From positions 1-23,017 of the IMG/VR virus record IMGVR_UViG_3300031673_000507: a stretch of 23,017 nt of DNA. One strand, 5' to 3'. A program made the position numbers and the translations under genes. The DNA is from a virus. Positions within the stretch are counted from its first letter, which is position 1; every line of letters begins with the position of its first letter. Positions 1 to 23,017 of the stretch are shown piece after piece. The notes under the pieces are model-generated. The model saw only the letters and a program-made list of their open reading frames with translations. It was not told the origin of the DNA and searched no databases.

Positions 1-3000
1 AACGCTTTACCCACTGCCTTGGCTGCTTCCGTGGTTTGTGGGCCGTATTGCATCTCGGCAGGTAACTTTTGTTCCCTTTGTGGAACAATGGGCCTATCAC
101 GGAAGAATGAGTAGTTGGCCTTATTTTCAAGTGCCGGATTAGCCGCAGTAGGTAATATATTAGGAATAAAAGTCTTTAAAGTTTCACCCAACCCCTTAAA
201 CGCTTCCGGGTCTTGGGTTTCAATGTAACTTAACACCCTTTCCGGTATTGATCCAAACAAAACACCAAGCTCAAACGGTTTAGGCACCCGGTAAAGATGC
301 TTTTCTGTTGGAATAATCCAGAATAAGTCTTTCTCCCATTGCGGAAGTTCTTGATAGCGCGGATCATCTTTATTTAACCCATACAAAAGCACTGACGGCA
401 ATGTAATGGCCGTAACAGTTTTAACCATGCTTGATAATGCCTGCTTGGGGTTGCGTGGGTCAAACTGCCTAACCATCTTGTCCATTCCTTGAACACTCGC
501 ATTTAAGAAGGCAGAAATCCTATTCCAGTTCTTCATTTTTGAACCGGCACGGGCGAAGTCTAACGTCACGTCACGGGAAGATAACGCCGCCTCAAAAGGT
601 GAAGCGCCGGACTTGATACCTTTTCTAAACTCACCAAGTCGTGTTCCTTGTTCCATTAACTCTGACAGGTACCGCAATGGTTCAAGGTAAGTTTGAATAC
701 TACCGAGAGACTTAACTCTGTCCCCCATGCTCTTACGCAGTATCTTTTTTAACCCTTGCTGCATGTAATCCCGGTCCATACTTACCATTGTTGACATACC
801 GCCGCCTGAATCGAGCCATTGCCAATACAGATCATCTTTTTTGAGCGTATGAAAAACACCACGAACCAGGTCCACAATGGGTAAGTATCCATATTTGCTA
901 TTGATAAACGCTGAAAACTGGTCACGGGCAGGGTTACGGACCATAAAGTCAGGAGATAACACAGCACCGGCTCTTAACGCCTGCGCCGGATAACTCATTA
1001 ACTTAATAACCAGGTTTGCGCTTTCCTGATCCAGTGAAGTAATGGCCCGATAAAGGTCAGGTTGCACCTGGTAGTGTTCAAGTTCACCATTATTCCACAC
1101 ATCAAGCACGTTTTCTTTACCACTACGCGCCCCCTCCACTTTTTCGACAAGCCTGCCTATACCCTCCGTTGTATTGGCCAACTCAGCAACTGCCTGTCCC
1201 ACTTTGTTTTTAGCTGCAATATTAGAGAACAGGTAAGTGTTTTTAATGATTGATTCAAGCGGGTCCAAAATGTCCCGGTCGCTACCGGTCATTTTCTTAA
1301 CCGGACTTCTAAGGTTGGCGTAACCTTTACCAAGGAATCCTATTGCAGCATTAGGATCATCGGCAAAACTACGGTAAAACGGCACATAATTTGGATATTT
1401 TTGCCGCATTGAAGTTATAGAACCACGGCTAATTACCCCGGCATCTGCCAACATTTCGAGAAGGTTATCCTGATACTTTACCAATTCGTCAAGAACCTGT
1501 TGATATTCTGCCGGTGAGTTTTGCAATACCTCCGCTATATCGGCATCAGTTAATCCGCTTTTCATGCCATAAGAGTTAATTTCCTGTGCGTGTTTAGCTA
1601 CGGCATAGGCGCGAAAATCATCAAGATTTTTTTCCACTGGCTTTAATATTTCTTTAAGCGAATTACCTATTTTGTTGCCATTAGCATCAAGCACGCCTTT
1701 ATTGAGCAATGTTTCAGCTTTACCGACCCATCCTCGGCCAATCCAGGCTAATTTATACGGGTCCTTTTCTGCCGTGAGAGTCCCGGACATTTTGCTAACT
1801 GATTTCAATGGGTCAATCTCGTCAATAAATAAACTGTATAACCTGCCAAGAGTGGTTTTCTTTTGTTCCTTTTCACTGATAGACATACTACCCAAAACAC
1901 GAGCCTTGGCCGGCTGATTGTACCATGTGTAAATATCCTGCTGCGCCTTTCTTAGCGCTTCCTCGATTTCTGGACTAGCTTTGATTTTCTGCTCAAACAT
2001 ATTAAAATACTTAGGCGCTGCCTGCCTTGCTGCTTGCTCGTCAGTCAGGAATAACCGCATAAACTCAGCAACACCTTCTTTTCTTACCTGGCCCGGTGTG
2101 TAACTTGACCGGGATGTTTTGCTGCCTAATGCCATTAATTCACTGTCAAACGCTGGATTTGCAAGTCCCAACTGTTTATCCAGGTAATGACCAACTTCGT
2201 GGGATATAACCGGTAAGTCATTCGCCATTCTAGTTCTGACCACTTCGGGCTTGATCTTGAATATTCCAAGTGCTTTTTGCTTGAAGCGCCCTGTTCTGAT
2301 TGGGACATTTAGTTTATCATCAAGAAATTTAATAATATCCCTGCGCTTAACCGTCCCCGTTGTATTGCCGCCGGTTGGCACCGGACCACCCGGACTTGCC
2401 ATTGCTTGTACGCCATCATCTACAGCACCCGAAAACTCACCTTTAACCTCGCTAGACTTAGCCTTAGTGGTTCCCTTTTTCGTTGCTGCCCCTTGCTGCT
2501 GTCCTGTCTCAACCCCTTGCCTTCCCTTACCGCCCTTCCTCGGTTGCCCCTGCGCTTCCTGCGCCAACTGCGGATACGCCTCAACTATCTTCGCCCTTCG
2601 CGCTTCGTTTTTGGTATTTTTCAAGATATTCCTGGCCGCATTAAGCTCAAAATTAGGTGCCGGAGGTTCGGGCACTTCAATTTTAGCCCTACCTGCGGTT
2701 GCAGAAACTTCCTTCTGTGCCGCTTCTATGCTGCTTTTCCATCCCCTAAATTCGCCCTGTAGCTCCGGGAAGGCTTCTAGTACCTTTGACACCCTGTCGG
2801 GGTTTTTAGAGCGGCTTATAGCAGACCTTGCGGCGTTTAATTCGCCTTCGGTTGGTCCAGTAATAACTTGCCCCTGCGTTGCAGTAGTCTTCCCTGCTTG
2901 CGCTTGCTCTTTGGCGATTTTAGCATCAACACGTTTTGCCATGACGGTAAATTCTTTACGTAGTTGAGGGTAAGTATTGAATATTTTCTGCGCCGTGTCT

Positions 3001-4571
3001 GTGTTTTTGGTTGCTTTTAGTATGTTCCTAGCGTTATTTAATTCTGCGGTTGGCTCCACTGGTTGCCTTGGTGTTAACGGTTTGGGTGGTGGACTTTCTA
3101 AACCAACGACCTCTTTCCACCTTGCATGTTCTGGATTGGTTGCTGTGTTAAACAGGTCTTGTAGGTCAACCCCACGTTTTGCCGCTTCTTGTTCTGCTAA
3201 CTTTTCAATACTTGGATTTTGTTTAATAATAGATTGGGCCATATCTGCAAGATCATCATAAGACATTTTCCTTATCTCGTTCTTGCTAATATCTCCGCCC
3301 AATCCTTCATAAACAAAATTAACAAGTTGTTTTGTGCTTTCCAGCGGTGCCACGCTTCGCTCTGCAACAGGTCTTTGCAATTCGCCCATTAAATTATTTA
3401 ATCTTACCTCTGCCCTCTGTTGCGTAGTTAAAGGCCAACTATACCCAAGTTCTTCCGCTTGCTGCCTTAACGCTGCTTCCTCTGCTGGTTCGGTTATGAG
3501 TTTTTTCTGTGTCGGTGCTTCTGGTTTAATGGTTGTGTCTATAGGCTTAACTTCTCCATTGAGTAGTGGAGTATTGGTCTGATTAGTCATGTCCTGCCGC
3601 AACTGTGCCTCATATCCTGTCATGGGCAACTCTGCCCGTTGCGGCGCTGCACCCTGCCTTATTGTAGTATCTATCTGCCCCGGCAATAGTGGCGTATTAA
3701 CCGCATTATTAACCCGCTGCCTTGCCGCTGTTTCTGCTTGTGCCATTGGAAGTTGTAATGGTTTAGTAAATCCCGATTGCCTAATTGCTTGCCCCGGTGT
3801 CTCTGATGCAAATTCAGGCAACAGTCTTATTTCCTGTCCTGCCGGTAAACCTAATGATTGCTGAATGTGGGGCGGGTTTAGACTTAAACCCCTGATGCGG
3901 TTTAATTTATTGGCATCTGTCGCCGCTTTTAGAAATGACCCGGCACCCTTCAGTGCAACATCACCGGCACCCCAACCTACTGCACCAATGGCCGCATTTT
4001 TGGCAATGTCAGGCAATGGTTCACCCTCTGCCGCTGAACGTGCGCCCTCAAAGATACCGCCCGATAAAGCGCCTTTTGCCGCCGCCTGTCCATAAGTACC
4101 TAGTTTTGCAAGTGCTGGAATCTTAGATACCCCGGCATAAATACCGCTTATTGGTAGAAAAGAACCTGCCAACTCACTCCCTGCCTGCATAACTCGCTCA
4201 GCAGTATTTACCGGAGCTACTTTGGTTGGATCTTGCAGGTACTTACCAACAGAATCCGGTAAAATATCAGCAACACGATCTATGGCGGCAGGTATAAGCC
4301 CACCGCCTTGGATACCCCTGGATGTGATACTAAGTCCACGTAATACCGGATTAGTCGGTACGATGGGAGTTGTGTTGGCCCCGGCAGCGTCAATCATGCG
4401 GAAGTCTGCAATACTGGTAGGTTTTGTAAACAGCAAAGACGCACTATTCTTTTGAGGCTTGGCTGAAGGTAGCGGTAGTGATTGTGTTTTTTTCTGCTTT
4501 TTTTCGTTCTTATTGGAGATTTGTTTATTCCCCAATTCCTCCATTTTCTTTAACGCGTCTAAGTAACTCAT
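1..4571 (-). CDS. Giant phage polyvalent protein with zincin-type metallopeptidase motif and LPD38-like domain (partial, C-terminus off window)
   Basis: One reading frame stays open from the ATG at 4571 to the window edge, 1523 codons with no stop, so the C-terminus is missing. The start follows AAGGTGG, which overlaps the previous stop. In order I see a lysine-rich N-terminus (about 1-45), a Gly/Ala-rich amphipathic segment (about 125-215), a low-complexity part with a two-copy motif (292-348), three helical repeats (510-673), then HEVGH at 791-795 with EGVAE at 832-836. This spacing fits a gluzincin zinc site: H791, H795, E836 as ligands and E792 as catalyst. From about 940 to the edge the sequence resembles LPD38 of phage polyvalent proteins, including DILDPLESIIKNT near 1100 and FFRDRPIVPQ near 1485. 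Polyvalent proteins are thought to be packaged and injected with phage DNA, where the peptidase could act on host proteins or process the protein itself. The role here is inferred. The motifs and open frame are seen directly. Confidence 0.88.
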   Translation of the reverse strand, partial: MSYLDALKKMEELGNKQISNKNEKKQKKTQSLPLPSAKPQKNSASLLFTKPTSIADFRMIDAAGANTTPIVPTNPVLRGLSITSRGIQGGGLIPAAIDRVADILPDSVGKYLQDPTKVAPVNTAERVMQAGSELAGSFLPISGIYAGVSKIPALAKLGTYGQAAAKGALSGGIFEGARSAAEGEPLPDIAKNAAIGAVGWGAGDVALKGAGSFLKAATDANKLNRIRGLSLNPPHIQQSLGLPAGQEIRLLPEFASETPGQAIRQSGFTKPLQLPMAQAETAARQRVNNAVNTPLLPGQIDTTIRQGAAPQRAELPMTGYEAQLRQDMTNQTNTPLLNGEVKPIDTTIKPEAPTQKKLITEPAEEAALRQQAEELGYSWPLTTQQRAEVRLNNLMGELQRPVAERSVAPLESTKQLVNFVYEGLGGDISKNEIRKMSYDDLADMAQSIIKQNPSIEKLAEQEAAKRGVDLQDLFNTATNPEHARWKEVVGLESPPPKPLTPRQPVEPTAELNNARNILKATKNTDTAQKIFNTYPQLRKEFTVMAKRVDAKIAKEQAQAGKTTATQGQVITGPTEGELNAARSAISRSKNPDRVSKVLEAFPELQGEFRGWKSSIEAAQKEVSATAGRAKIEVPEPPAPNFELNAARNILKNTKNEARRAKIVEAYPQLAQEAQGQPRKGGKGRQGVETGQQQGAATKKGTTKAKSSEVKGEFSGAVDDGVQAMASPGGPVPTGGNTTGTVKRRDIIKFLDDKLNVPIRTGRFKQKALGIFKIKPEVVRTRMANDLPVISHEVGHYLDKQLGLANPAFDSELMALGSKTSRSSYTPGQVRKEGVAEFMRLFLTDEQAARQAAPKYFNMFEQKIKASPEIEEALRKAQQDIYTWYNQPAKARVLGSMSISEKEQKKTTLGRLYSLFIDEIDPLKSVSKMSGTLTAEKDPYKLAWIGRGWVGKAETLLNKGVLDANGNKIGNSLKEILKPVEKNLDDFRAYAVAKHAQEINSYGMKSGLTDADIAEVLQNSPAEYQQVLDELVKYQDNLLEMLADAGVISRGSITSMRQKYPNYVPFYRSFADDPNAAIGFLGKGYANLRSPVKKMTGSDRDILDPLESIIKNTYLFSNIAAKNKVGQAVAELANTTEGIGRLVEKVEGARSGKENVLDVWNNGELEHYQVQPDLYRAITSLDQESANLVIKLMSYPAQALRAGAVLSPDFMVRNPARDQFSAFINSKYGYLPIVDLVRGVFHTLKKDDLYWQWLDSGGGMSTMVSMDRDYMQQGLKKILRKSMGDRVKSLGSIQTYLEPLRYLSELMEQGTRLGEFRKGIKSGASPFEAALSSRDVTLDFARAGSKMKNWNRISAFLNASVQGMDKMVRQFDPRNPKQALSSMVKTVTAITLPSVLLYGLNKDDPRYQELPQWEKDLFWIIPTEKHLYRVPKPFELGVLFGSIPERVLSYIETQDPEAFKGLGETLKTFIPNILPTAANPALENKANYSFFRDRPIVPQREQKLPAEMQYGPQTTEAAKAVGKA
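2553..3044 (-). repeat. Three tandem copies of a helical repeat inside the polyvalent protein
   Basis: Residues 510-541, 577-608 and 642-673 of the polyvalent protein align as one 32-residue unit, spaced 67 and 65 residues apart. The shared pattern is ELNxARxxLxxxKN, then a basic stretch, then a hydrophobic residue, (T/A)(Y/F)PxL and a final acidic residue. On DNA the copies lie at 2949-3044, 2748-2843 and 2553-2648. The DNA copies have diverged much more than the protein pattern, which suggests old duplication kept by selection. The segments between copies are rich in Ala, Lys and Gln and look like linkers. I do not recognise the unit as a named domain. Confidence 0.8.
3528..3698 (-). repeat. 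Two-copy NTPLL...DTTI motif inside the polyvalent protein
   Basis: Residues 292-304 read NTPLLPGQIDTTI and residues 333-348 read NTPLLNGEVKPIDTTI. They are the same motif with a three-residue insertion, about 41 residues apart, in a low-complexity region before the helical repeats. Each is followed within a few residues by Ala/Pro/Gln-rich sequence. They could be short linear docking motifs or remnants of a duplication. Confidence 0.6.
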
Positions 4572-4583
4572 TCAACCACCACC

Positions 4584-6230
4584 TTATAGTGAATCAAAAA
4601 GACTTTGCAACTTAGCACCATTAGCCGTATTAAAATAGTCCTCCGGCGACATTTGGGTTTTGGTACGAATTAAGTCAGCAACAACTTGGGATACATTAGC
4701 ACCGCTTTCCCTGGCAGCAGATATCCACTCAGGGTCACTAATTAATGACGAAACAGCGTAATATAATGGGTAGTCATACCCTTTACCTTTGAGTTGTTCG
4801 TATCTGTTGGATGCAGCATTAAATAGTGTGGTTGTGGCCAATGCTTGGCGTTCCCCCTGTGTGCTTGGTGGCTTTACACTGCTGCTGCCACTACCGCTAC
4901 TACCGCCTCCGCCTCCACCGCTACCGCTACTTGCCGCCTTTTGCTGGCTTAAAGCGAATTGTGCCTGGTTCATTGCTTGCTCTGCCGTAAGCCCAGGCGG
5001 TAAATCAAACCCGGTCAACTGCTTAAACGCTGCACTTGTTTCCGACGTAACATTACCGGTAAGTTGGATGATGCCCATTAAGTTAGCTAACTGCTGCTGT
5101 TTTTCTGCTGTCTGTGTTGTCTGCTGGTTTTCAGTCCTGCGCTGTTGTTCCTGGCTCTGCTGCCAGTAGGCGTTATTTTGATCTGACCAATTTTGCCGCT
5201 GGTTGTTGTAATCGTTCAAACTGGCATTATACCTATTCTGCTCACCTTGGCTGAACTGGTTAATAGCCTGGTTGGTGGGAACCCAAGTAATCCCGCGACT
5301 ATTTACGTCCGGTGCCTGCCAATCCTTGTTTTGGTTAAATTCGCGGGGTTGGTAAACGTCATAAGTGGGTGCCGCTGGAAGGTCGTACAACGGCATATTT
5401 AAGGTATTTGCCGCCTGTGCAGTGGCAGGTTGCGAAACCTGCGGTAACTCTAAACCATAACCCACCCGACTGGCATCTGCCTGAAGTCTGTTTGCAAGGT
5501 CAGTGTTTCCGGAGGAAAGTGCCTGACGATAACGGGCCTGCTGGCCTGCTGCGTAACCACCTAAACCGCCGTAACTATCCAAATAACCCCCCTGTGCCTG
5601 GGGAGTTGGTAAATTAACCTGAGGTGCGCTTACCTGGGCTTTTGATTGCGTAGTTGTAGGAGTAGGAAGCATGGCGCTAATGCCCCCTACGCCACTAATT
5701 AAAGGCTTTGGCGTGTATTTACTGCCGCCAAGTGAGCTAGGGTCAGCGTTCATCATACTCTCACCCTTATCGTTGGCAACATAGCCACTGTTTGTAACCG
5801 GGCCGAAATATTTAAAAATATCACCCACACCGGCAAGTCTCGCAACGTCAGAATTGGGAGTGGTGTGGGTATAACCATACTGATCCTTATAGGCAAGGCG
5901 TGTGCCGTCTGCAAAGTCAGGTGCAAGGGTATTGCCAAGTATCATAGCGGAGTTAACCGCACGTTTTATGCTGTCGCCGTAGTCCGTTGGCAAACTGCCG
6001 GGGGCAAAACTACCACCAAGGCCATCGCTGTAGTTACCGGCACTCCTGGCATCTGCTACCGCCTTACTGCTGGTGGACATGCTTTTGCCGGTATCCTTAT
6101 CCTTGTAGGAGTAAGTACCTTTATTACTACCGGAGTTGGAAATGCCCAGGGATTTTTTCTTGTCCTCTGCCGCCTGCGTAGTGATGTGATAACTGCCGTC
6201 TGACTGTTTAACTCTTATCATGTCGGACAT
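4584..6230 (-). CDS. Low-complexity virion protein, candidate DNA-ejection protein
   Basis: This 548-residue protein matches no family I can name. It begins with a charged, Ser/Thr/Lys-rich stretch, carries a Gly/Tyr-containing middle, a Gln/Asn-rich segment (about 325-380) predicted to be helical, a Gly/Ser run (about 430-452) that looks like a flexible hinge, and a compact helical C-terminal part of about 95 residues. No signal peptide or membrane segment is evident. The ATG at 6230 overlaps the preceding stop as TAATG and follows AAGGAG. In short-tailed phages, genes between the tail genes and the largest injected protein often encode internal or ejection proteins (gp7, gp16 and gp20 in P22; gp14-gp16 in T7). 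Position and composition make that the best guess. A tail-associated linker protein is the main alternative. Confidence 0.72.
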   Translation of the reverse strand: MSDMIRVKQSDGSYHITTQAAEDKKKSLGISNSGSNKGTYSYKDKDTGKSMSTSSKAVADARSAGNYSDGLGGSFAPGSLPTDYGDSIKRAVNSAMILGNTLAPDFADGTRLAYKDQYGYTHTTPNSDVARLAGVGDIFKYFGPVTNSGYVANDKGESMMNADPSSLGGSKYTPKPLISGVGGISAMLPTPTTTQSKAQVSAPQVNLPTPQAQGGYLDSYGGLGGYAAGQQARYRQALSSGNTDLANRLQADASRVGYGLELPQVSQPATAQAANTLNMPLYDLPAAPTYDVYQPREFNQNKDWQAPDVNSRGITWVPTNQAINQFSQGEQNRYNASLNDYNNQRQNWSDQNNAYWQQSQEQQRRTENQQTTQTAEKQQQLANLMGIIQLTGNVTSETSAAFKQLTGFDLPPGLTAEQAMNQAQFALSQQKAASSGSGGGGGGSSGSGSSSVKPPSTQGERQALATTTLFNAASNRYEQLKGKGYDYPLYYAVSSLISDPEWISAARESGANVSQVVADLIRTKTQMSPEDYFNTANGAKLQSLFDSL

Positions 6231-7147
6231 TATGCACCACTCCTTAAAGCGTTAAGGTACTGCGTTAATGTGCTGGCGTAATCATTAGGAATTGGAGCAG
6301 AAGGTGTTGCGCTGGCAAGGGTGCCGCCGTAACCAAGCAGGGTGCTTAGTATTTGAGCCTGTAGTGCCTGCTGACGGTATTGTTCATCAAGTCCGGTACT
6401 GCCCTGCTGCTGCCCGAATTGTGCCGCCCATTGGTTCTCTGCCGCCTGTTTTGCAAGTTGGTCCATCTGGTTTTGATACTGTTGCTGTCCGAGTGAGTTA
6501 TTGTACTGGTCAGCATAATTCTGCTGCCCCTGCTGCTGCCCTAACAATGAGGAAAGGTTCTGTGTTGCATCTTGCTGCTGTCCGTACAGATAACCCCTCT
6601 CCGATAAACCCAACTGCGCCTGGGGAATAGTCTGGTTCATGGCCTGCTGCAGGACATTAGTGTTATTGGCCCCGATTGCACCGTTACGGGCTATTTCGTT
6701 GCCCATTAGCTGATTCGTTGCCGTGCCGCCCCGGTTTAACCCCTGCCCGGCAAGCATTTCTTTTAACGCCTCCGCAGACTGATTGTAGTTGGCGTTAGTT
6801 TGGGTATTCATATTCTGACGGATGGGATTCATGGACTCATAATTGTTCTGCGCCGCCTGACTAAACCACTGCGGAGATTGATACTGTGCCGTGCTGCCGG
6901 TATTTGCCGCCTTATTGATTTGGCTCTGTACATCTCCATAACTTACGGTACTGACAGGGCTTTTAGTCCTGGCATATAGAGGACTATCCACCTGAGAGTA
7001 ATCTGTTGGGTTATATTTGTTTTGAATTATGCTGCTATATGCTTCCTTATTTAGTTGATTTGTAGGCCCAGTATAAGATACAGTGTCGTCCTTTTTAACG
7101 TAATAAGGGTCTTGCAAATTTGAAGTATTAATAGCATTAATGACCAT
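6230..7147 (-). CDS. Gln/Asn-rich virion protein, candidate DNA-ejection protein
   Basis: The 305-residue product is very rich in Gln, Asn, Ala and Tyr, with repeated QQQ and GQQQ tracts between about residues 185 and 260 and an ARNGAIGANNTNVLQQA segment near residue 150. It should be mainly helical and soluble. There is no signal peptide or membrane helix. The ATG at 7147 has a very strong site, AAGGAGGTG, placed 8 bases upstream, one of the best in the window, which suggests high expression. It overlaps the next gene by one base (TAATG), so the two are likely translated together. Composition and place in the operon resemble small ejection proteins of short-tailed phages, but I see no family signature. 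Function is inference only. Confidence 0.72.
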   Translation of the reverse strand: MVINAINTSNLQDPYYVKKDDTVSYTGPTNQLNKEAYSSIIQNKYNPTDYSQVDSPLYARTKSPVSTVSYGDVQSQINKAANTGSTAQYQSPQWFSQAAQNNYESMNPIRQNMNTQTNANYNQSAEALKEMLAGQGLNRGGTATNQLMGNEIARNGAIGANNTNVLQQAMNQTIPQAQLGLSERGYLYGQQQDATQNLSSLLGQQQGQQNYADQYNNSLGQQQYQNQMDQLAKQAAENQWAAQFGQQQGSTGLDEQYRQQALQAQILSTLLGYGGTLASATPSAPIPNDYASTLTQYLNALRSGA

Positions 7148-7217
7148 AAAAAATACACCTCCTTGGGGTGCTAGTTGTGGTATTGCTATATTTTAATGAG
7201 TGAACGGTTTAATCCTA

Positions 7218-7355
7218 CTAGGACGCAATTAAATCCTGTTTACCGTCAGCAACAAGGATTTCGTCAATATCGCTTTTAAACTGTGAATACTTTGAAATTA
7301 CCGCCATATAATCCAATTTTCCCTGTTCTATTCTCATCGCTAAGTAAGCTGCCAT
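7218..7355 (-). CDS. Small XkdX-like phage protein
   Basis: A 45-codon ORF begins with ATG at 7355, behind GGGAGGT with good spacing, and ends with TAG at 7218. Only three bases separate it from the stop of the upstream coiled-coil gene. It starts MAAYLAMRIEQGKLDYMAVI and ends DEILVADGKQDLIAS. The N-terminal pattern (short hydrophobic start, Arg-Ile, GKLxY, a second hydrophobic stretch) resembles the XkdX family, found next to tail-fibre genes of Firmicutes phages such as PBSX. The role of XkdX is unknown. It was found by hand because it is below usual ORF-length cut-offs. The site and context make it very likely a real gene. The family call is moderate because the protein is short. Confidence 0.75.
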   Translation of the reverse strand: MAAYLAMRIEQGKLDYMAVISKYSQFKSDIDEILVADGKQDLIAS

Positions 7356-7358
7356 TTT

Positions 7359-7676
7359 TTACATACCTCCCATAATTAAAAAGTCTAATGCTTCCTGCGT
7401 AGTCGCCAACTGTGCTTCCAGGTCTTTTATTTTTGCATCTTTATCGGCCAACTGCTGCAGCATATACTGTGCCGCAGGAGCCTGCTGCACTGCACCAAAC
7501 ATGCCGTTTGCTGTTCCATCAGGGTTAAGATGCGCATAAATTGCGTAAGTAAACTCATCATTAACTTTAAACTGGTCTGTTGCAATTACACCATGTTCTG
7601 CAACAACCGATGTTGGTTCTGTTTCATGTATAGTTACCACATACCCATCAGATTTTTGATATTCAAGATAAGCCAT
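7359..7676 (-). CDS. Small phage protein with C-terminal coiled coil
   Basis: This 105-residue protein starts with ATG at 7676 behind AAAGGGGGT. Residues 1-70 look like a small beta-rich domain. Residues 70-98 form a clear heptad-like helix (LADKDAKIKDLEAQLATTQ) and the protein ends EALDFLIMGGM. Small proteins with this coiled-coil ending sit directly downstream of tail-fibre genes and upstream of XkdX or holin genes in many Firmicutes phages. The same order is seen here: fibre, this gene, XkdX-like gene. It may be a fibre-associated or chaperone-like protein; its biochemical role is unknown. It is probably cotranscribed with the fibre gene, 26 bases upstream. Confidence 0.75.
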   Translation of the reverse strand: MAYLEYQKSDGYVVTIHETEPTSVVAEHGVIATDQFKVNDEFTYAIYAHLNPDGTANGMFGAVQQAPAAQYMLQQLADKDAKIKDLEAQLATTQEALDFLIMGGM

Positions 7677-7702
7677 TTTTATACCCCCTTTAAATTAGAA
7701 CT

Positions 7703-8923
7703 TTAAACTATACCAGTAATTTGTATATAACAATTGCTATTTGCATAATCAGTATCAGCGTAAGCTATTATTTTAACATAAAAATTACCAGATAATGATG
7801 AAACGTCTAATACATTTTGATTGGAAACAGAAGCGTTATATACAGTTTCGTCTGAATGTTGTACTGTTGACACCTGAAAATTATAATGAGTATCTGTAGG
7901 AAAATGAACGGATGCAGTCAAAGTTATAGTATTTACAGAGGTAAGATCAATAGCTGATTCCGTTACCAATCCATTTTTATTATATCTAGGATTACTGAAA
8001 TAGGAAAGAATTTTTAAAGATCCATCAGGTAAATAACCACATTGATTATAAAGAGCAGTATTAGGGATAAAATGTACCCCCTTGTAAGTAATCATTGGAT
8101 TCTTAACAGCAGAACCAGCTACACCATAAATATCCTTACCAATCACAATATTAGGTGCAATTAAATCTGCATCACCTAGTATAGTCTGCGCTCCGCTAAG
8201 ATACTGCCCTGCTGCAATGGTTTGATTTGCTGTACTCGGTGTAATCGTTGCTGCTGTTTTAGCTGGCATAGTTCCTGCTGTACCGGCAACGGTGGTTCCG
8301 GTTAATAGCTTGCTTGCATCAAAAGTTACGGCGCTAACCTTACTGCCGGTTTTGTAATGCCCCTCTGAAACAGCCTGCTCAATATTTGAAGGGGTAAATG
8401 TTACCACGCCACGCTCGGTCATAGTTCCCGTAGCACTATCCCCTGCCAACGCGCTGTCGAATGTCTTACCGGCAAGAACATCCGTTACCGCCGCCGTACC
8501 CGTGGAAGGAACGTCCGTTACAATGCTGTCAATGTTCCCTGCCATTGTTGCAAATGTGTCACTACCATCTGTCGATATACCCTTGTCAGTGATGGCGGTA
8601 GCAACAAGCGTTTTACCATCACTGACAGATTGAAAAAGCTCGGCCATTGCCCCTTCCACATCGGTTGCCGTGAAGTTACCGCCTGCATCCTCTAGTCCAA
8701 CCAAACTCGCACCCTTACCGTTATCCGTTGAGGCGATGTCTTCCGTGTTTGCCTTTTTAGCTATCGCTGCATCAACCTCAACCGTTAGGGTATCGTCAAT
8801 GTAATCCTTTAGCTGCTTTGCCCTGCTGTCAAAGTTGGCCTTTGTTACGTCTGCCGCCAACTCTAATTTATCTGCTTGGTCGGCATGGTTAAAGGTAAAT
8901 ACCGGAGTTTTAGTTAAAGCCAT
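7703..8923 (-). CDS. Tail fibre protein with GDA/GxxIxGVxG-type repeats
   Basis: The 406-residue product has an N-terminal helical part (about 1-75) suited to virion attachment or trimerisation. A central region (about 145-270) carries short fibre repeats: VLAGKTFDS, ATGTM, TVAGTAGTMP, GHYKTGSKVS, GQYLSGAQ and GKDIYGVAGSAV. These are typical of tail fibres of Firmicutes phages and form beta-rich shafts. The last 135 residues or so are a different beta-rich domain, probably the host-binding head. The DNA for that head (7703 to about 8150) is clearly more AT-rich: the 60 bases from 7741 hold 17 G/C, the 60 from 8461 hold 34. This suggests module exchange. The start ATG at 8923 follows AGGTGGTGA, which overlaps the upstream stop codon. 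Confidence 0.88.
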   Translation of the reverse strand: MALTKTPVFTFNHADQADKLELAADVTKANFDSRAKQLKDYIDDTLTVEVDAAIAKKANTEDIASTDNGKGASLVGLEDAGGNFTATDVEGAMAELFQSVSDGKTLVATAITDKGISTDGSDTFATMAGNIDSIVTDVPSTGTAAVTDVLAGKTFDSALAGDSATGTMTERGVVTFTPSNIEQAVSEGHYKTGSKVSAVTFDASKLLTGTTVAGTAGTMPAKTAATITPSTANQTIAAGQYLSGAQTILGDADLIAPNIVIGKDIYGVAGSAVKNPMITYKGVHFIPNTALYNQCGYLPDGSLKILSYFSNPRYNKNGLVTESAIDLTSVNTITLTASVHFPTDTHYNFQVSTVQHSDETVYNASVSNQNVLDVSSLSGNFYVKIIAYADTDYANSNCYIQITGIV

Positions 8924-8934
8924 TTAATCACCAC

Positions 8935-10782
8935 CTACTTAACACGTTTGATAAACATGTACTGAAGCGACTGTCCAAGTATCGTGAGTCCTTCGTTTAG
9001 ATTGCTGTTGCGGATTCTCCACTGCATATACTCGCCCTTTTCCTTGATTTTCTTAGTTTGACTTGAAGGGAAAAACGGAACGCCGTAATTAAATACAGCA
9101 TAGTCAATTGAACTGTAATCAAAACTACCTGCCGTTTCAACGAGTGCGTCGAGGTCTTTCTTATCCTTGTCGGTAAAAATGGTAAGTTGATGGTTTCCTT
9201 CCGGTTGCCCCTTGAAGGTAATGTTTAACCGCATGAATTTCTTAACCCAATCGCGCCTACCTCCGAATATCAGGGGAGAAGTCCACCAAGCATCAATTGC
9301 CGTCCCGTCGTCGCTGTAACTGTTCCTGTTTTGCTTATAAATAACACCTAACGTCTTATGGCCAATGTAAACACTTTCGTTCTGCTCGCTCACTAAAAAC
9401 TGCCCTGCATTAGCATAAACGCCATCGTAGGGATACCAGCAGTAAATACCATTGGCAAGGTCGGAGTAGTTAAGGTCTAAGATCCAAGTTTTATTTTTAA
9501 TGCTAAGTCTGTATTTGCCGTGGTCAAGGCAGGCATAAGCCCCTTCTAAGTCAGCAATATCCTCGTCCAGAATACCGGAATCAACACCGTTTCTGGCAAG
9601 TCCATTAATCTTCTCGCTTACAACCCGGGCGTTAAGTTGTCCGCGCACAAACGAAGGAGTTACCCATATTACCCCCTGCTTAGAGAGTGCCAATAGCCCA
9701 CCTTGCGCCGGCTTAATTGTCCTTGCAGATACACAACCGTATTCGTCGTTCATGGGGTAGTTGGGAAACATTACCTTCCCTGTGCTGTCAACTTCAATCG
9801 TGCTGTAATAAAGACTGTCATACTTAAAATGAATCAGGTAGTCTACCAACTTTCCAAAGCCGGTTAATTCTTCGGCATCACTGCCGAGTAAATCGTAGTT
9901 GTTTATTGGGAAGTAAGTCGGGTCAAGCAGTCCACTGTATACGCGCTGGTTAGGGTAGTCAGGGTTGCCGCACAAAAAAACCCTTGTGTCATTCCTGCCG
10001 CCGTAAATAACCCCTGTAGTGCATTTACTAACGACTGTGGCATCATTGAGCCCTGCCTTGGTTGCTTTAATTTCTACAATGGCATCATTGGCAACGGGGG
10101 AGGCAAAGGTAACTTTTTTATAATCGCCGCCAGTTGGGAAGGTTACTGCGGTTGGTGTGCCGTTAACGGTTGCCGTTGCACTGTCGGCGGCAATGGTTAA
10201 AATATACTCGGTACTTGTTCCGTCCCCGGTAAACCCCTCAATCCAGCTGTTAGAAAGAAGGTTTAGTTCCTTGTCTGTCGCCCCGCCTGTGCCGTCAGGT
10301 GCCTTACCAATCACCACAGTAGGGATATAGCCAACCACATCTGCCACAGCATGAGTGCCGTCATAGACAACATAATCCGTACCGGTCATGCAATAGAGTT
10401 TATCGCCCACAACAAAAAACCAGCACTGCGTATCTGCAATACTGGCCTTGGCCCCGGTCATTAAATCAGTTTTGGTGCCATCATCATTTAACACCCATAA
10501 CTTACCGCCCCAGGCAATAATCCTTTTAAGCGTCCCTCCGGGCGGCGTATATTCAGCCATTCCCTTGATGCCGGTATCGCCCCACGAATCGCTCATACGG
10601 GCAAATCCAAAGCGTTTTGTCGGCTTCGAGCCTACATTGTAGTTCATGTTTATCATGTCCGGGCTTTCATTTGATGCAACAAGATCCGGCGGTACGCTGA
10701 TGTTGTACCCCCCGGCAAAACCTTGGGGGAAGTCGAAGGGCGGTAGTCTTTTGGCTGGTTGAGTAACAGGATAGTTAATCAT
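8935..10782 (-). CDS. Tail hub/nozzle protein, P22 gp10-like (putative)
   Basis: This 615-residue, beta-rich protein starts MINYPVTQPAKRLPPFDFP; its ATG is directly adjacent to the preceding TAG (TAGATG). An early segment (about 15-60, GGYN...PDLVASNESPDMINMNY...KRFGFAR) and blade-like repeats of Gly/Trp/Tyr-rich strands (about 75-150 and 250-500) recall the propeller-containing tail nozzle or stabilisation proteins of short-tailed phages (P22 gp10, T7 gp12 class). A Thr/Val-rich insertion (about 185-245) could be a separate beta domain. Such proteins form a hexameric tube below the adaptor ring and seal the packaged DNA. Its location just after a gp4-like gene supports this. It is longer than P22 gp10 (about 470 residues). 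The family call rests on pattern and position, not on an alignment. Confidence 0.72.
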   Translation of the reverse strand: MINYPVTQPAKRLPPFDFPQGFAGGYNISVPPDLVASNESPDMINMNYNVGSKPTKRFGFARMSDSWGDTGIKGMAEYTPPGGTLKRIIAWGGKLWVLNDDGTKTDLMTGAKASIADTQCWFFVVGDKLYCMTGTDYVVYDGTHAVADVVGYIPTVVIGKAPDGTGGATDKELNLLSNSWIEGFTGDGTSTEYILTIAADSATATVNGTPTAVTFPTGGDYKKVTFASPVANDAIVEIKATKAGLNDATVVSKCTTGVIYGGRNDTRVFLCGNPDYPNQRVYSGLLDPTYFPINNYDLLGSDAEELTGFGKLVDYLIHFKYDSLYYSTIEVDSTGKVMFPNYPMNDEYGCVSARTIKPAQGGLLALSKQGVIWVTPSFVRGQLNARVVSEKINGLARNGVDSGILDEDIADLEGAYACLDHGKYRLSIKNKTWILDLNYSDLANGIYCWYPYDGVYANAGQFLVSEQNESVYIGHKTLGVIYKQNRNSYSDDGTAIDAWWTSPLIFGGRRDWVKKFMRLNITFKGQPEGNHQLTIFTDKDKKDLDALVETAGSFDYSSIDYAVFNYGVPFFPSSQTKKIKEKGEYMQWRIRNSNLNEGLTILGQSLQYMFIKRVK

Positions 10783-11407: not shown

Positions 11408-11431
11408 TAAAACCACCGTTTGGTGGTTTTA
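11408..11431 (-). terminator. Intrinsic terminator at the end of the integrase gene
   Basis: TAAAACCACC and GGTGGTTTTA form a perfect 10-bp inverted repeat with a four-base loop. The integrase TAA stop (11429-11431) lies in the stem, and a T-rich tail (TTTTAAATTTTA) follows on the minus strand. The stem is symmetric, so it could also act on the plus strand. It would insulate the recombinase transcript from the tail genes unless read through. Confidence 0.7.
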
Positions 11432-12283
11432 TGTGTTGAAATACCGTTTATATATTTGCTTTCTGCGTTCTCCGCTTAGTTGGGCATATATTTGCGTACT
11501 TTCATGTTTGGCGTGGCCCATGAGTTGCTGTATTGCCTCCATTGGTGCCCCATTATTAAGTAAGTGCGTAGCATAACTATGCCTTAACCTATGGGGATAA
11601 ACATTAGCTTCAATGCCTGCCCTTTTAGCTACATTCTTTACTATGGTTCGCATTTGGCTAACACTTAACCTTACTGGTTTACCTCCGAATTTTCGTTCAG
11701 TAACAAATAACGCAGGTTCCTTATCTGTTCTTGTTTCAATGTATTTTTTCATCCATATGCCGCATTTTGTGTTAAAGTAAATTTCCCTTTCAACGCTACC
11801 TTTGCCATGTACTATTATTGAATTATTACGCCAATCAATGTCGTTAATATCTATTTTGACCACTTCACCAATCCTACAACCGGAGGTATACATAAACTCA
11901 ACAATAGCATGTTCCCTTGGTTTTTCGCAATACGCCCGTAGTGTTTCGACTTCTTCTTCGGTCAAAAACTTTGGTACATGTTTACCCATATTAGATTCCC
12001 TTACCTTTGCGGCAGGATTACTTTCTATATATCCTTCGTCAACCGCCCATCTAAACAACGAATGTAAAAACCTTACCCTGTGGTTGATACTTGAAGGCTT
12101 TAAATGTTCCTGCTTGTAAAGATACTCTTTTAGTTGATGGTATGTTATTTCTTTAATGTCGCAATTGTTAAATTCCCTAGAAAGTAAAGTGGCTTGTATT
12201 TTATAACCCTTCAAAGTATACGGAGAATATTTTAAGAGTTTTTTATCCTTCTCGTAATATTCCCACGCTTCCAATATAGTCAT
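11429..12283 (-). CDS. int: Tyrosine recombinase / phage integrase
   Basis: This is a full-length XerC/XerD-type tyrosine recombinase of 284 residues. An N-terminal SAM-like core-binding domain (about 1-90) precedes the catalytic domain. The catalytic set is complete: R137 in TSGCRIGEV, K161 in HGKGS, H231 and R234 in PHRLRHSYATHL, H257 in LMGHAKHESTQ, and the nucleophile Y266. It should cut and rejoin att or dif-like DNA for integration and excision. The frame extends to a TTG at 12328, but I chose ATG at 12283 because AAGGGGGTG lies at good distance. A candidate promoter at 12308-12336 and a terminator at 11408-11431 make it nearly self-contained. Its place between head and tail genes is unusual; integrases normally sit beside att and the repressor. 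The gene is more AT-rich than the head genes, consistent with separate acquisition. It could instead be a resolvase or a fibre-switching recombinase. Confidence 0.95.
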   Translation of the reverse strand: MTILEAWEYYEKDKKLLKYSPYTLKGYKIQATLLSREFNNCDIKEITYHQLKEYLYKQEHLKPSSINHRVRFLHSLFRWAVDEGYIESNPAAKVRESNMGKHVPKFLTEEEVETLRAYCEKPREHAIVEFMYTSGCRIGEVVKIDINDIDWRNNSIIVHGKGSVEREIYFNTKCGIWMKKYIETRTDKEPALFVTERKFGGKPVRLSVSQMRTIVKNVAKRAGIEANVYPHRLRHSYATHLLNNGAPMEAIQQLMGHAKHESTQIYAQLSGERRKQIYKRYFNT

Positions 12284-12307
12284 TTCTTGGCACACCCCCT
12301 TATTGAA

Positions 12308-12336
12308 AGTATACCAAAAATAGTTCAATAAAACAA
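12308..12336 (-). promoter_or_regulatory. Candidate sigma-70/sigma-A promoter for the integrase
   Basis: On the minus strand, TTGTTT (12331-12336) and TATACT (12308-12313) are separated by exactly 17 bases in the 86-base gap between the fibre and integrase genes. The -10 is a 5/6 match and the -35 a 3/6 match. The expected transcript start, near 12301, falls at the beginning of the AAGGGGGTG binding site, which is tight. No terminator is visible after the fibre gene, so read-through from the late operon is also possible. Confidence 0.4.
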
Positions 12337-12369: not shown

Positions 12370-14475
12370 TTAAATTTGTAATTTTTCACCTACCACTAAT
12401 ATCATATCATCTGCAGAATTAGTATTATTAACTGTTACTTTGATAAAAGGCATTTTCACATCAGTAAAAAGCAAACCCCTGGTTGACGCTATAGTGGTAT
12501 CTACATCGAAAGGTAATACTGTGCCAAAAGTTGCCGAGCTAGTTGATTCTGTGTCACACCATTGTGCATAAATATTACCATTTAATGCCTTTGAACCACT
12601 TGTTTTATTAACATATAATGAACCCTTACGGTACTTAGACCAATCGTGGACAAATATTGTAGTCGTAGTCCCTGAAGGCACAGTAAATGTTCCCACGACG
12701 GTTGGTTTCTGTGCTAACATATTAGCTTCAGGGTCAACGTATTTTGATAAATCATTAACAGTTATAGAGGCTGGTTCTCCTTTTATTGTTACAATGCTCC
12801 CATCCTCTATATTCTTACACCAAAAATAAAATGATCCTTTGGCATCTGGGCCTATAATAGCAAAAATACCACGTTCCAAACCAGACGATGCAGGAATAAA
12901 TTCTTTGTCAAGTTGCCATTTTTGACCAGCATCCAATGATATAAATATCGAAGGATTCTGCATGCCTAGATATGTGTTAGTATTTGTAACTGTTACCATT
13001 GAACTTGCAATAAATAGATTTCTATAACCAATAAAAGCATATGATGTATGTGGTAATAAAAAAACTCTTATTAAAGGGCCTCGAACACGTACACGATTTA
13101 AATACTCTATACTATATACGCCTTCATATCCTGACGTACCATCAGATGACCAAACCAATCTATCTACTGATGGAGCAAATACCCCAAGTGTTCTATAATA
13201 TTGACTTTGATCGTTAAGTATGTTTTCCCATGTTATACCATCACTAGACTGATACCAAAGTATTCCTGGACCATCGCCGGTTGTGGTAATCCACCTCTGT
13301 ACGTTGTGTAAATACTGGCAACTATGCCAGTGATCCACTCCAGTTGCACCAAATTTATCTAATACTATTGCCCATGTTAAACCGCCATCATTAGAACGAC
13401 GTACAGCAATCGTTGCACCGTTTAAATTGTAATATTCGCAGAAACATATAATATCACCATTAGAATCAACACCGCCGGGTAACGGCAATCCTGTATCACT
13501 CAAAACTTCCGTAAAATTAACATCATCTGTAGAACGATACACTTTTTGGCTATTACAAAATAACAGTAAAACACCTGTGCTTGATAAGTGAGCAGAAGTA
13601 ATCGAAGCTGTACTAGGTGGTGTAAAAATAGAACTACCCCAAGTATCTCCGTTGTCGGTACTTTTATAGAGATTTTTTTGAGTTGTATCCATCCCATAAA
13701 GCGTGTTCTCATAAACAGCTACAACAATGTAATCCATCTCTGTGTATGTTAACCTTGATCTATCCCTTATTGGTATGGATTGATCATCCGCAACATTACT
13801 ACCAGAGAGTTGTACAGATTGAGTACCGGCATCAATAATCTCGTAAATGTCACCATCTTGCCCACCATAGGCATCCATGCCACCGGAAAATGAAATACTT
13901 GAGTTTGTGGTAAATGGTTTACTGCCATCTGCACCAGTTACCGATGCCGTAAATTGAGCAAGTGCATTAATAGCAGCGGCAACCAATGTGCCGGTATTCT
14001 TGGCGGCATCAAGTGCCCCTTCTGCATCAGTGCCAAGGGTTACGGTTATAATGTTGTCTGCCAGTACAGCACTCAGGTCAACATCTGCTCCCTCTCCAGA
14101 CACAACATCTGCGGTGTATTTATTGCCATCATTACCGGCAGCAGCAACCACAATAGTTACTTCGTAATCATATGCGTCACCTATTACGGCACTTGCCGCT
14201 ACTGCTGCGCTTAATTCTGCTGTCGTAAAGGTGTTTGCAGTATTGCTTACGATTGACCTGATAAATTCATTACTACCGGAAAATAACCGGATAAGTTTGC
14301 CTGCAAGCATATTGGTTGTAAAGTTTTTGGTCGTGTCCTGTATGGTTGTCGATGTGCCTCCGGTTGCAGTGCCCCTGATTAGTGCCGTTGCCCCACCTGT
14401 GGTCACAACATAAGCGGAACCATCGCGCCCCTCCTGGTCTGGACGAGAATCATCTCTTGGATCATAATATTGCAT
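12370..14475 (-). CDS. Mosaic fibre protein with Asp-box (BNR) beta-propeller, putative receptor-binding protein
   Basis: The 701-residue product has two short virion-type domains at the N-terminus: about 30-107 (TATGGTSTTIQDTTKNF...AGKLIRL...SNTANTFT), common in phage fibres, and about 108-200 (NDGNKYTADVVSG...IITVTLGTD). Then comes a region with Asp boxes: STDNGDTW at 272-279, SNDGGLTW at 361-368, SSDGITW at 410-416 and SLDAGQKW at 513-520, with a degenerate one near 315. Asp boxes mark sialidase-like beta-propellers, used for glycan binding or hydrolysis. The last 110 or so residues look like a beta-sandwich. The ATG at 14475 abuts the preceding TAG. The DNA is AT-rich after about 13755, just where the propeller starts. 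Its location after capsid genes allows a head fibre as well as a tail spike. Enzyme activity cannot be claimed; no sialidase catalytic arginine triad is evident. Confidence 0.8.
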   Translation of the reverse strand: MQYYDPRDDSRPDQEGRDGSAYVVTTGGATALIRGTATGGTSTTIQDTTKNFTTNMLAGKLIRLFSGSNEFIRSIVSNTANTFTTAELSAAVAASAVIGDAYDYEVTIVVAAAGNDGNKYTADVVSGEGADVDLSAVLADNIITVTLGTDAEGALDAAKNTGTLVAAAINALAQFTASVTGADGSKPFTTNSSISFSGGMDAYGGQDGDIYEIIDAGTQSVQLSGSNVADDQSIPIRDRSRLTYTEMDYIVVAVYENTLYGMDTTQKNLYKSTDNGDTWGSSIFTPPSTASITSAHLSSTGVLLLFCNSQKVYRSTDDVNFTEVLSDTGLPLPGGVDSNGDIICFCEYYNLNGATIAVRRSNDGGLTWAIVLDKFGATGVDHWHSCQYLHNVQRWITTTGDGPGILWYQSSDGITWENILNDQSQYYRTLGVFAPSVDRLVWSSDGTSGYEGVYSIEYLNRVRVRGPLIRVFLLPHTSYAFIGYRNLFIASSMVTVTNTNTYLGMQNPSIFISLDAGQKWQLDKEFIPASSGLERGIFAIIGPDAKGSFYFWCKNIEDGSIVTIKGEPASITVNDLSKYVDPEANMLAQKPTVVGTFTVPSGTTTTIFVHDWSKYRKGSLYVNKTSGSKALNGNIYAQWCDTESTSSATFGTVLPFDVDTTIASTRGLLFTDVKMPFIKVTVNNTNSADDMILVVGEKLQI

Positions 14476-22346: not shown

Positions 22347-23017
22347 TCAATATGCAACCTCATACATTCGCCGTACCTTCACGCCGTCTGAAACAAAGTG
22401 CAGTATATGGTAATCACAGTTTTTATATTCAGTCCTAAAATGCTTATCAATTATCCGTTTCATACTATCCATGTCAAGATCACCAAAGTCAACTTCAAGT
22501 TTTCCGTCATAAAAACTAATTATCTTATCGGTAACACGTTCCCACTGTTCTTCCTTTAATCTGGGGTGTTGTCTACCCATCTCATTCTCGTATTCATTAA
22601 GATAGTAAATAACCGTATCAACTATATCATTATCAACCCAGCACGAATTACAAAATTCTTCAAATGTGCAAGGAGTAGTGGTAGCTACTCCCTTATTGTT
22701 TTTCTCTGTTTTAATCTCTGTGGTGGTTTCTGTTAAAGAACCTTCGTTTTCAAAGTTTCGTTCCTTTGTATTCGCAGTTTGGTTTCTTTGAAAACGCAGA
22801 AACGAATCTGCAAACTTACTTATATTTAATCGGTAGTGTACCGTAGGGTTGCCGTTAGCCTTTTTAATCTTAGTTTCAAGGATGCCCATGTCTTTAAGTT
22901 GCCTGGCTGATTTTCTAATTGCGTATTCAGTCAGACATATTTCTTCCTGCCATTCTTTATAGGTCTTATAAATCCATCCTTGTTTATTACCTCCACGGTC
23001 ACACCAGTATATTAATT
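22347..23017 (-). CDS. Winged-helix phage replication-type protein (partial, N-terminus off window)
   Basis: The frame stays open to the right edge, beyond the internal ATG at 22889, so the start lies outside. The visible N-terminal part, LIYWCDRGGNKQGWIYKTY followed by KEWQEEICLTEYAIRKSARQ and LKDMGILETKIKKANG, with HYRLN at its end, is a winged helix-turn-helix as in phage replication initiators and DnaD/O-like proteins: recognition helix then wing. A Thr/Glu/Lys-rich linker (about 60-110 residues in) leads to a C-terminal alpha/beta domain with HPRLKEEQWERVTDKI and DYHILHFVSDGVKVRRMYEV, seen in related phage proteins of Firmicutes. It may bind the origin. It is AT-rich compared with the structural genes. 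It ends 22 bases before the small ORF. A transcriptional regulator is the alternative. Confidence 0.7.
   Translation of the reverse strand, partial: LIYWCDRGGNKQGWIYKTYKEWQEEICLTEYAIRKSARQLKDMGILETKIKKANGNPTVHYRLNISKFADSFLRFQRNQTANTKERNFENEGSLTETTTEIKTEKNNKGVATTTPCTFEEFCNSCWVDNDIVDTVIYYLNEYENEMGRQHPRLKEEQWERVTDKIISFYDGKLEVDFGDLDMDSMKRIIDKHFRTEYKNCDYHILHFVSDGVKVRRMYEVAY

What the first reader, a model, noticed from the sequence alone, without database searches (positions are those of the whole stretch)
1..4571. Giant polyvalent protein with a zinc-peptidase motif, open for at least 1523 residues
The whole left fifth of the window is one reading frame, easily missed because it has no stop in the window. 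HEVGH at 791-795 with EGVAE at 832-836 fits a gluzincin site, and the C-terminal half resembles LPD38 of phage polyvalent proteins. Such proteins are thought to be injected with DNA to counter host defences. The peptidase may cleave a host target or the precursor itself. The combination of Gly/Ala-rich front end, repeats, peptidase and LPD38 in a short-tailed phage deserves attention.
Basis: partly seen in the sequence, partly recalled or inferred. Interest (0 to 1): 0.65.

Follow-up and report, generated by a model that had tools for sequence, protein, structure and literature searches.

The report
Phage ejection protein with embedded zinc-peptidase
A short-tailed phage carries a giant protein, probably injected into the bacterium with its DNA, that has an intact zinc-protease domain fixed directly in front of a large helical module found throughout phages but with no match among solved structures; the general type is already known.

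Summary
The frame lies on the minus strand (ATG at 4571, open at base 3, 1523 aa, cut by the contig end). HEVGH and EGVAE are where stated. No Pfam zincin model hits this single sequence, but relatives settle it. In 59 aligned relatives the only invariant residues are H791, E792, H795, E832, G833, A835, E836, R839 and P853. AlphaFold gives a confident zincin fold (core pLDDT 97-99). The nearest solved structures by sequence and fold are M34 peptidases (lethal factor, PPEP-1/Zmp1, PPEP-3). E832, not E836, is the likelier third zinc ligand.

Pfam LPD38 covers only 1403-1523. It is part of a helical module (905-1523 and beyond) conserved across phages, with no match in the PDB. Where present, the peptidase starts its HExxH ~120 residues before this module in 105 of 106 proteins, with HExxH intact in 139 of 139. 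About half of the sampled modules lack the peptidase (at least 8 gains or losses).

Most likely reading: a virion-packaged ejection protein whose active metallopeptidase cuts in cis to free N-terminal cargo. Cleavage, packaging and target are inferred. The type is described (Iyer et al. 2017), so this is a new member.

The parts
3..4571 (-). giant polyvalent/ejection-type protein, 1523 aa, ATG at 4571, C-terminus cut off by the contig end
   Evidence: Shine-Dalgarno-like aaggtggtgg at 4585-4576
3927..4184 (-). Gly/Ala-rich segment, about residues 130-215
   Evidence: possible membrane-active stretch (inference)
2556..3053 (-). three ~34-residue repeats (about 507-541, 572-610, 638-672)
   Evidence: pairwise scores 83-90, none of 2000 shuffles as high
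1956..2351 (-). M34-like zinc metallopeptidase (zincin) domain, about residues 741-872
   Evidence: AlphaFold pLDDT 97-99; VIA-align to lethal factor Z 8.6 and PPEP-1 Z 7.0; PDB profile search
2187..2201 (-). HEVGH, residues 791-795: two zinc-ligand histidines and general-base glutamate
   Evidence: invariant in 59 relatives; HE..H in 139 of 139
2064..2078 (-). EGVAE, residues 832-836: E832 predicted third zinc ligand, E836 second shell
   Evidence: alignment to lethal factor; E836 replaced by Q or D in two relatives that keep E832
3..1859 (-). C-terminal helical module, residues 905-1523 and beyond the window
   Evidence: AlphaFold pLDDT 89.5, pTM 0.89; no PDB match; 83 BFVD matches at E <= 0.001
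3..365 (-). Pfam LPD38 (PF18857), residues 1403-1523, part of the C-terminal module
4584..6230 (-). 548-aa protein directly upstream, position of a gp15-like ejection protein
   Evidence: weak match to the gene at the same place in L012 (E 1e-4); median upstream gene 380 aa in related loci
6230..7147 (-). 305-aa protein, next upstream, position of a gp14-like ejection protein
   Evidence: weak match to the gene at the same place in L012 (E 4e-4)

Best explanation
The gene encodes an ejection (internal virion) protein at the place where T7-like and N4-like phages have their largest ejection protein. It has three parts: a variable N-terminal cargo (Gly/Ala-rich segment and repeats), an active M34-type zinc metallopeptidase, and the LPD38-containing helical module, which is the constant part and most likely the packaging/ejection chassis. 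H791, H795 and E832 bind zinc and E792 activates water. Fixed between cargo and chassis, the peptidase most likely cuts the polypeptide in cis, at the linker in front of it or inside the cargo, at assembly or after ejection, so that the cargo is freed from the chassis. Shown computationally: the domain, the intact conserved site, its fixed position, its dispensability for the module. Inferred: packaging, ejection, zinc binding, proteolysis and the cut site. I put about 0.85 on an intact zincin in an ejection-type protein and about 0.45 on cis-cleavage as its main job.
For: Zincin by profile: Pfam ATLF matches 15 of 59 members at E < 0.1, best 4e-4, far more than any other family; the best PDB sequence matches of the A1 and A2 profiles are lethal factor and PPEP/Zmp1. 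Fold: helix, three strands, HExxH helix, Glu helix; lethal factor Z 8.6, PPEP-1 7.0, Certhrax 6.9, PPEP-3 6.6, IrrE 6.0. Conservation: HE..H in 139 of 139, in 39 of 39 peptidase-bearing proteins of a sample seeded on the C-terminal module, not on the motif. Fixed place: HExxH 112-145 residues before the module in 105 of 106. Gain or loss at least 8 times while the module stays. Homologues: JC1 gp69, a giant LPD38 protein with a lytic transglycosylase domain, was found in virions by mass spectrometry (PMC9144972). Relatives carry SLT, phage lysozyme, ParB, methyltransferase, RadC and nuclease cargo. Gene order in L007 and L009: tail tubular A/B, acetyltransferase, internal virion protein B, ~500 aa, giant. 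Precedent: P1 DdrB, which has an MPTase, is proteolytically processed before packaging (PMC5512222).
Against: N4 virion RNA polymerase also has an HExxH domain before a helical C-terminal part, yet is packaged uncut (PMC5512222) and showed no degradation as a recombinant protein (PMC12633501). The Pro-rich linker before the peptidase (10.1% Pro against 5.5% farther up) is no cleavage clue, since proteins without the peptidase have it too (13.1% against 5.0%). Longer cargo with the peptidase (median 630 against 383 aa, p 0.013) does not survive control for kinship (sign test median p 0.4-1).
Confidence: 0.5

Rival explanations
1. The peptidase is an injected effector that cuts a host protein in trans (for example a defence or envelope protein); the fixed place next to the chassis only reflects descent.
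For: The nearest characterised relatives, lethal factor and PPEPs, act on other proteins (established knowledge; fold and profile matches). Iyer et al. 2017 allow for this. Repeated loss in some lineages fits a host-dependent benefit.
Against: Position fixed in 105 of 106, although other cargo domains vary freely; no known defence-related match.
Confidence: 0.3
2. The domain is a structural part of the C-terminal module (a folding or regulatory subdomain like N4 C1, which contacts both C2 and the polymerase), with or without zinc, and proteolysis is not its job.
For: Fixed adjacency; N4 C1 and C2 are contiguous in the cryo-EM structure and the protein stays uncut (PMC12633501).
Against: The catalytic glutamate E792 never varies (139 of 139), which zinc structure alone would not need; half of the modules do without the domain. 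Only L125 (and its near-copy L127) shows a lost ligand (K for E832).
Confidence: 0.15
3. Counter-defence antirestriction protein of the DarB type, protecting the injected DNA, with the peptidase only maturing it.
For: Relatives are annotated DarB-like or DNA methylase; some carry ParB or methyltransferase domains.
Against: No methyltransferase, helicase, ParB or other antirestriction domain is found in this protein.
Confidence: 0.05

Closest known systems
Phage polyvalent proteins with MPTase and LPD38 (Iyer et al. 2017, PMC5512222)
   Same: giant multidomain phage protein, zincin-like MPTase, LPD38, structural-gene neighbourhood
   Different: the N-terminal half matches no catalogued cargo domain; the zincin is closer to Pfam ATLF than to Pfam MPTase-PolyVal (15 against 2 of 59 members)
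MEROPS M34 peptidases: lethal factor and Pro-Pro endopeptidases (PPEP-1/Zmp1, PPEP-3)
   Same: fold (Z 8.6 to 6.6), HExxH, third Glu on the next helix; best PDB profile matches
   Different: embedded in a phage protein, about 20% identity, no transport or receptor-binding parts; specificity unknown
Coliphage N4 virion RNA polymerase (gp50)
   Same: HExxH domain (C1) directly before a large helical module without structural relatives (C2); giant last gene of an ejection cassette
   Different: no RNA polymerase here; profile comparison aligns only the HExxH stretch and gives no significant match for C2
T7 gp16 / Bcep22-like DarB-like protein (JC1 gp69)
   Same: largest protein after the tail and core-protein genes; LPD38 shared with JC1 gp69; the relative L002 has the N-terminal SLT domain
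   Different: the window protein has no SLT domain; sequence relation to T7 gp16 not shown

Membership tests
LPD38 (PF18857) | score above Pfam's gathering cut-off | tested here: met
   129.8 bits against 27, residues 1403-1523, cut by the contig end
Zincin metallopeptidase | HExxH plus a third ligand on a following helix, in the helix / 3-strand / 2-helix fold | tested here: met
Zincin metallopeptidase | binds zinc and cleaves peptides | not testable with these tools
   needs purified protein
M34 / ATLF-PPEP | sequence-profile match | tested here: inconclusive
   best E 1e-3 (PDB), 5e-3, 4e-4 for the best member against Pfam ATLF; consistent but below gathering cut-off, and no hit for the window sequence alone
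M34 / ATLF-PPEP | fold most similar to M34 structures | tested here: met
   top 41 rows of VIA-align all M34/ATLF-type, Z 8.6-6.3, above IrrE at 6.0; the Foldseek E-values are weak, the best M34 row is at E 0.064
M34 / ATLF-PPEP | catalytic Tyr shortly before the zinc-ligand Glu | tested here: inconclusive
   Y824 lies 8 residues before E832; 34 Tyr at offsets 7-9 across 59 members, not one fixed column
Pfam MPTase-PolyVal (PF18818) | score above gathering cut-off | tested here: not met
   no hit for the window protein; 2 of 59 relatives, best E 7e-3
Phage polyvalent proteins | several unrelated domains in one phage protein, beside structural genes | tested here: met
   repeats, zincin, LPD38 module; neighbours are portal, capsid and adaptor genes
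Phage polyvalent proteins | carried in the virion and delivered with DNA | not testable with these tools
   only by homology: JC1 gp69 in virions (PMC9144972)
N4 vRNAP C1-C2 | homology of the C-terminal module | tested here: inconclusive
   hhalign probability 0.5%, E 0.11 with a shallow N4 profile

The most novel reading that the evidence does not exclude
The residue 905-to-end module (of which Pfam LPD38 is a fragment) is an unrecognised general packaging/ejection chassis with a new fold, and the M34-type peptidase is its dedicated cargo-release protease, gained or lost as a cassette according to cargo.
Probability: 0.25. Interest if true: 0.65.

Novelty: new member of a known kind. Interest (0 to 1): 0.4.

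Why it matters
How giant proteins are packed into capsids and sorted after ejection is open. This family offers a clean comparison: one chassis, with and without an intact peptidase at one fixed place, so the role of the peptidase can be tested by one point change in a podophage. The confident helical C-terminal model without any PDB match is a good structural target.

Tried and rejected
Single-sequence Pfam, PHROGs, NCBIfam and PADLOC searches gave no zincin or defence match. Pro-rich linker as an M34-type cleavage site: fails the control, since proteins without the peptidase have an even more Pro-rich linker. Peptidase going with longer cargo: nominally p 0.013, gone after pairing on the tree. 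Homology of the C-terminal module to N4 C2: not significant. PDB fold relatives of the C-terminal module: none listed by Foldseek (best E 0.42) or VIA-align (best Z 4.5); N4 vRNAP entries exist, but whether they were in the fold library was not checked. The 64-row C-terminal alignment was too diverse for a collection scan. Seeding caveat: the first set of relatives was found with EG[FV]AEF in the pattern, so conservation of that motif was re-tested on the C-terminal-seeded set.

Full report
What is there. The window is a 23,017-base virus record whose genes run on the minus strand from a terminase small subunit near the right end to a giant gene that leaves the left end. The giant frame starts at ATG 4571 and is open at base 3, with aaggtggtgg in front. 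The plus strand over the same bases has many stops. Neighbours are terminase, portal, scaffold and major head protein, an SU10-type adaptor near cut-off, a head-closure/virion protein that is 31% identical to a protein of the Bacillus phage Palmer, a tail fibre and two proteins of 305 and 548 aa. This supports, but does not prove, a short-tailed phage.

The zinc site. The single sequence hits no Pfam zincin. Relatives do: an alignment of five already keeps HExxH and EGxAEF at about 25% identity. A scan of viral contigs with it gave 80 loci. In the 59-row alignment the only invariant columns are H791, E792, H795, E832, G833, A835, E836, R839 and P853. Searching the PDB with these profiles puts lethal factor (E 1e-3) and PPEP-1/Zmp1 and lethal factor (E 5e-3 to 1e-2) first. 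Pfam ATLF is matched by 15 of 59 members (best 4e-4), MPTase-PolyVal by two. AlphaFold on the alignment gives pLDDT 89.7, core 97-99, with helix 10-20, three strands, the HExxH helix 53-68 and the Glu helix 93-110, the layout that Iyer et al. describe for MPTases (PMC5512222). VIA-align ranks lethal factor (Z 8.6, 120 residues, 3.2 A), PPEP-1 (7.0), Certhrax (6.9) and PPEP-3 (6.6) above IrrE (6.0). Plain Foldseek scores are weak (best E 0.03 for unrelated regulators; lethal factor 0.064 with probability 0.98), so the M34 assignment rests on agreement between methods.

Which glutamate. In the alignment, E832 pairs with the lethal-factor glutamate at chain position 478, four before 482. With the published lethal-factor numbering (ligands H686, H690, E735; established knowledge) position 478 is E735. 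In a set of relatives found through the C-terminal module, E832 is kept in 39 of 40 rows (K in L125), while E836 is Q in L115 and D in L120. So E832 is the likely ligand and E836 a second-shell residue.

The C-terminal module. Pfam LPD38 covers 1403-1523, but conservation runs from about 905 to the end. Bacillus, Pelagibacter, Vibrio, Shewanella and Escherichia phages share it. AlphaFold gives pLDDT 89.5 and pTM 0.89, nearly all helical. Nothing in the PDB matches (Foldseek best E 0.42; VIA-align best Z 4.5), while 83 predicted phage proteins do at E <= 0.001.

Relation of the two parts. Seeded on the C-terminal module alone, 39 of 80 proteins have the peptidase, all with HE..H; the others lack the domain altogether. 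Over all sets, 139 of 139 keep HE..H. The distance from HExxH to the module start is 112-145 residues (5th to 95th percentile), with one outlier in 106; three more proteins, two of them cut off by contig ends, show no module hit. On a tree of the module the peptidase changes state at least 8 times, all forced by supported branches. Hence the module does not need the peptidase, but the peptidase, where kept, is kept catalytic and always in the same place.

Mechanism. By gene position, LPD38, and virion detection of the homologue JC1 gp69 (PMC9144972), this is best read as an ejection protein. Fixed position between variable cargo and constant chassis fits cis-release of cargo; P1 DdrB is a precedent for processing (PMC5512222). 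N4 vRNAP is the counter-example: same order (HExxH C1, helical C2), no cutting seen (PMC12633501). A Pro-rich linker and longer cargo looked like support but failed controls. I therefore give cis-cleavage 0.45, trans-cleavage of a host protein 0.3 and a structural role 0.15.

Novelty. Polyvalent phage proteins with a zincin MPTase and LPD38, and the kinship of such MPTases to lethal factor, were published in 2017. This is a new member, with a sharper assignment (M34-like, E832), a positional rule and a larger, structurally unmatched C-terminal module.

Noticed in passing
window 11429-12328 (-): A tyrosine integrase (PF00589, 140 bits) sits inside the structural gene block, between a 701-aa protein and the adaptor gene, which suggests a temperate phage with an unusual integrase position.
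   Followed up: no
window 12370-14475 (-): 701-aa protein with weak BNR/Sortilin and F510_1955 glycosylhydrolase matches, perhaps a beta-propeller virion or tail protein.
   Followed up: no
L007 5281-6774: In Caudoviricetes sp. ct8d5349 the gene before the giant one matches the repeat region (510-632) of the window's giant protein (29%, E 8e-6): domains move between the two ejection-type genes.
   Followed up: no
L144 giant ORF 3911-9607: A peptidase-less relative carries histidine phosphatase and Zeta-toxin-like domains as N-terminal cargo.
   Followed up: no
L125 and L127 giant ORFs: Near-identical relatives in which L125 has K in place of the predicted zinc ligand E832 (KKGFAEF) while HELGH stays, possibly an inactivated copy.
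   Followed up: partly
L099 408-11102: A 3565-aa relative encoded on a 433-kb contig of Brevibacillus migulae, probably in a prophage; other prophage-like copies in Fermentithermobacillaceae and Ammonifex assemblies (L091, L092) suggest a Firmicute host for the window's phage.
   Followed up: partly
window 22741-22799: Short imperfect 22-bp tandem repeat (2 copies) near the right end.
   Followed up: no
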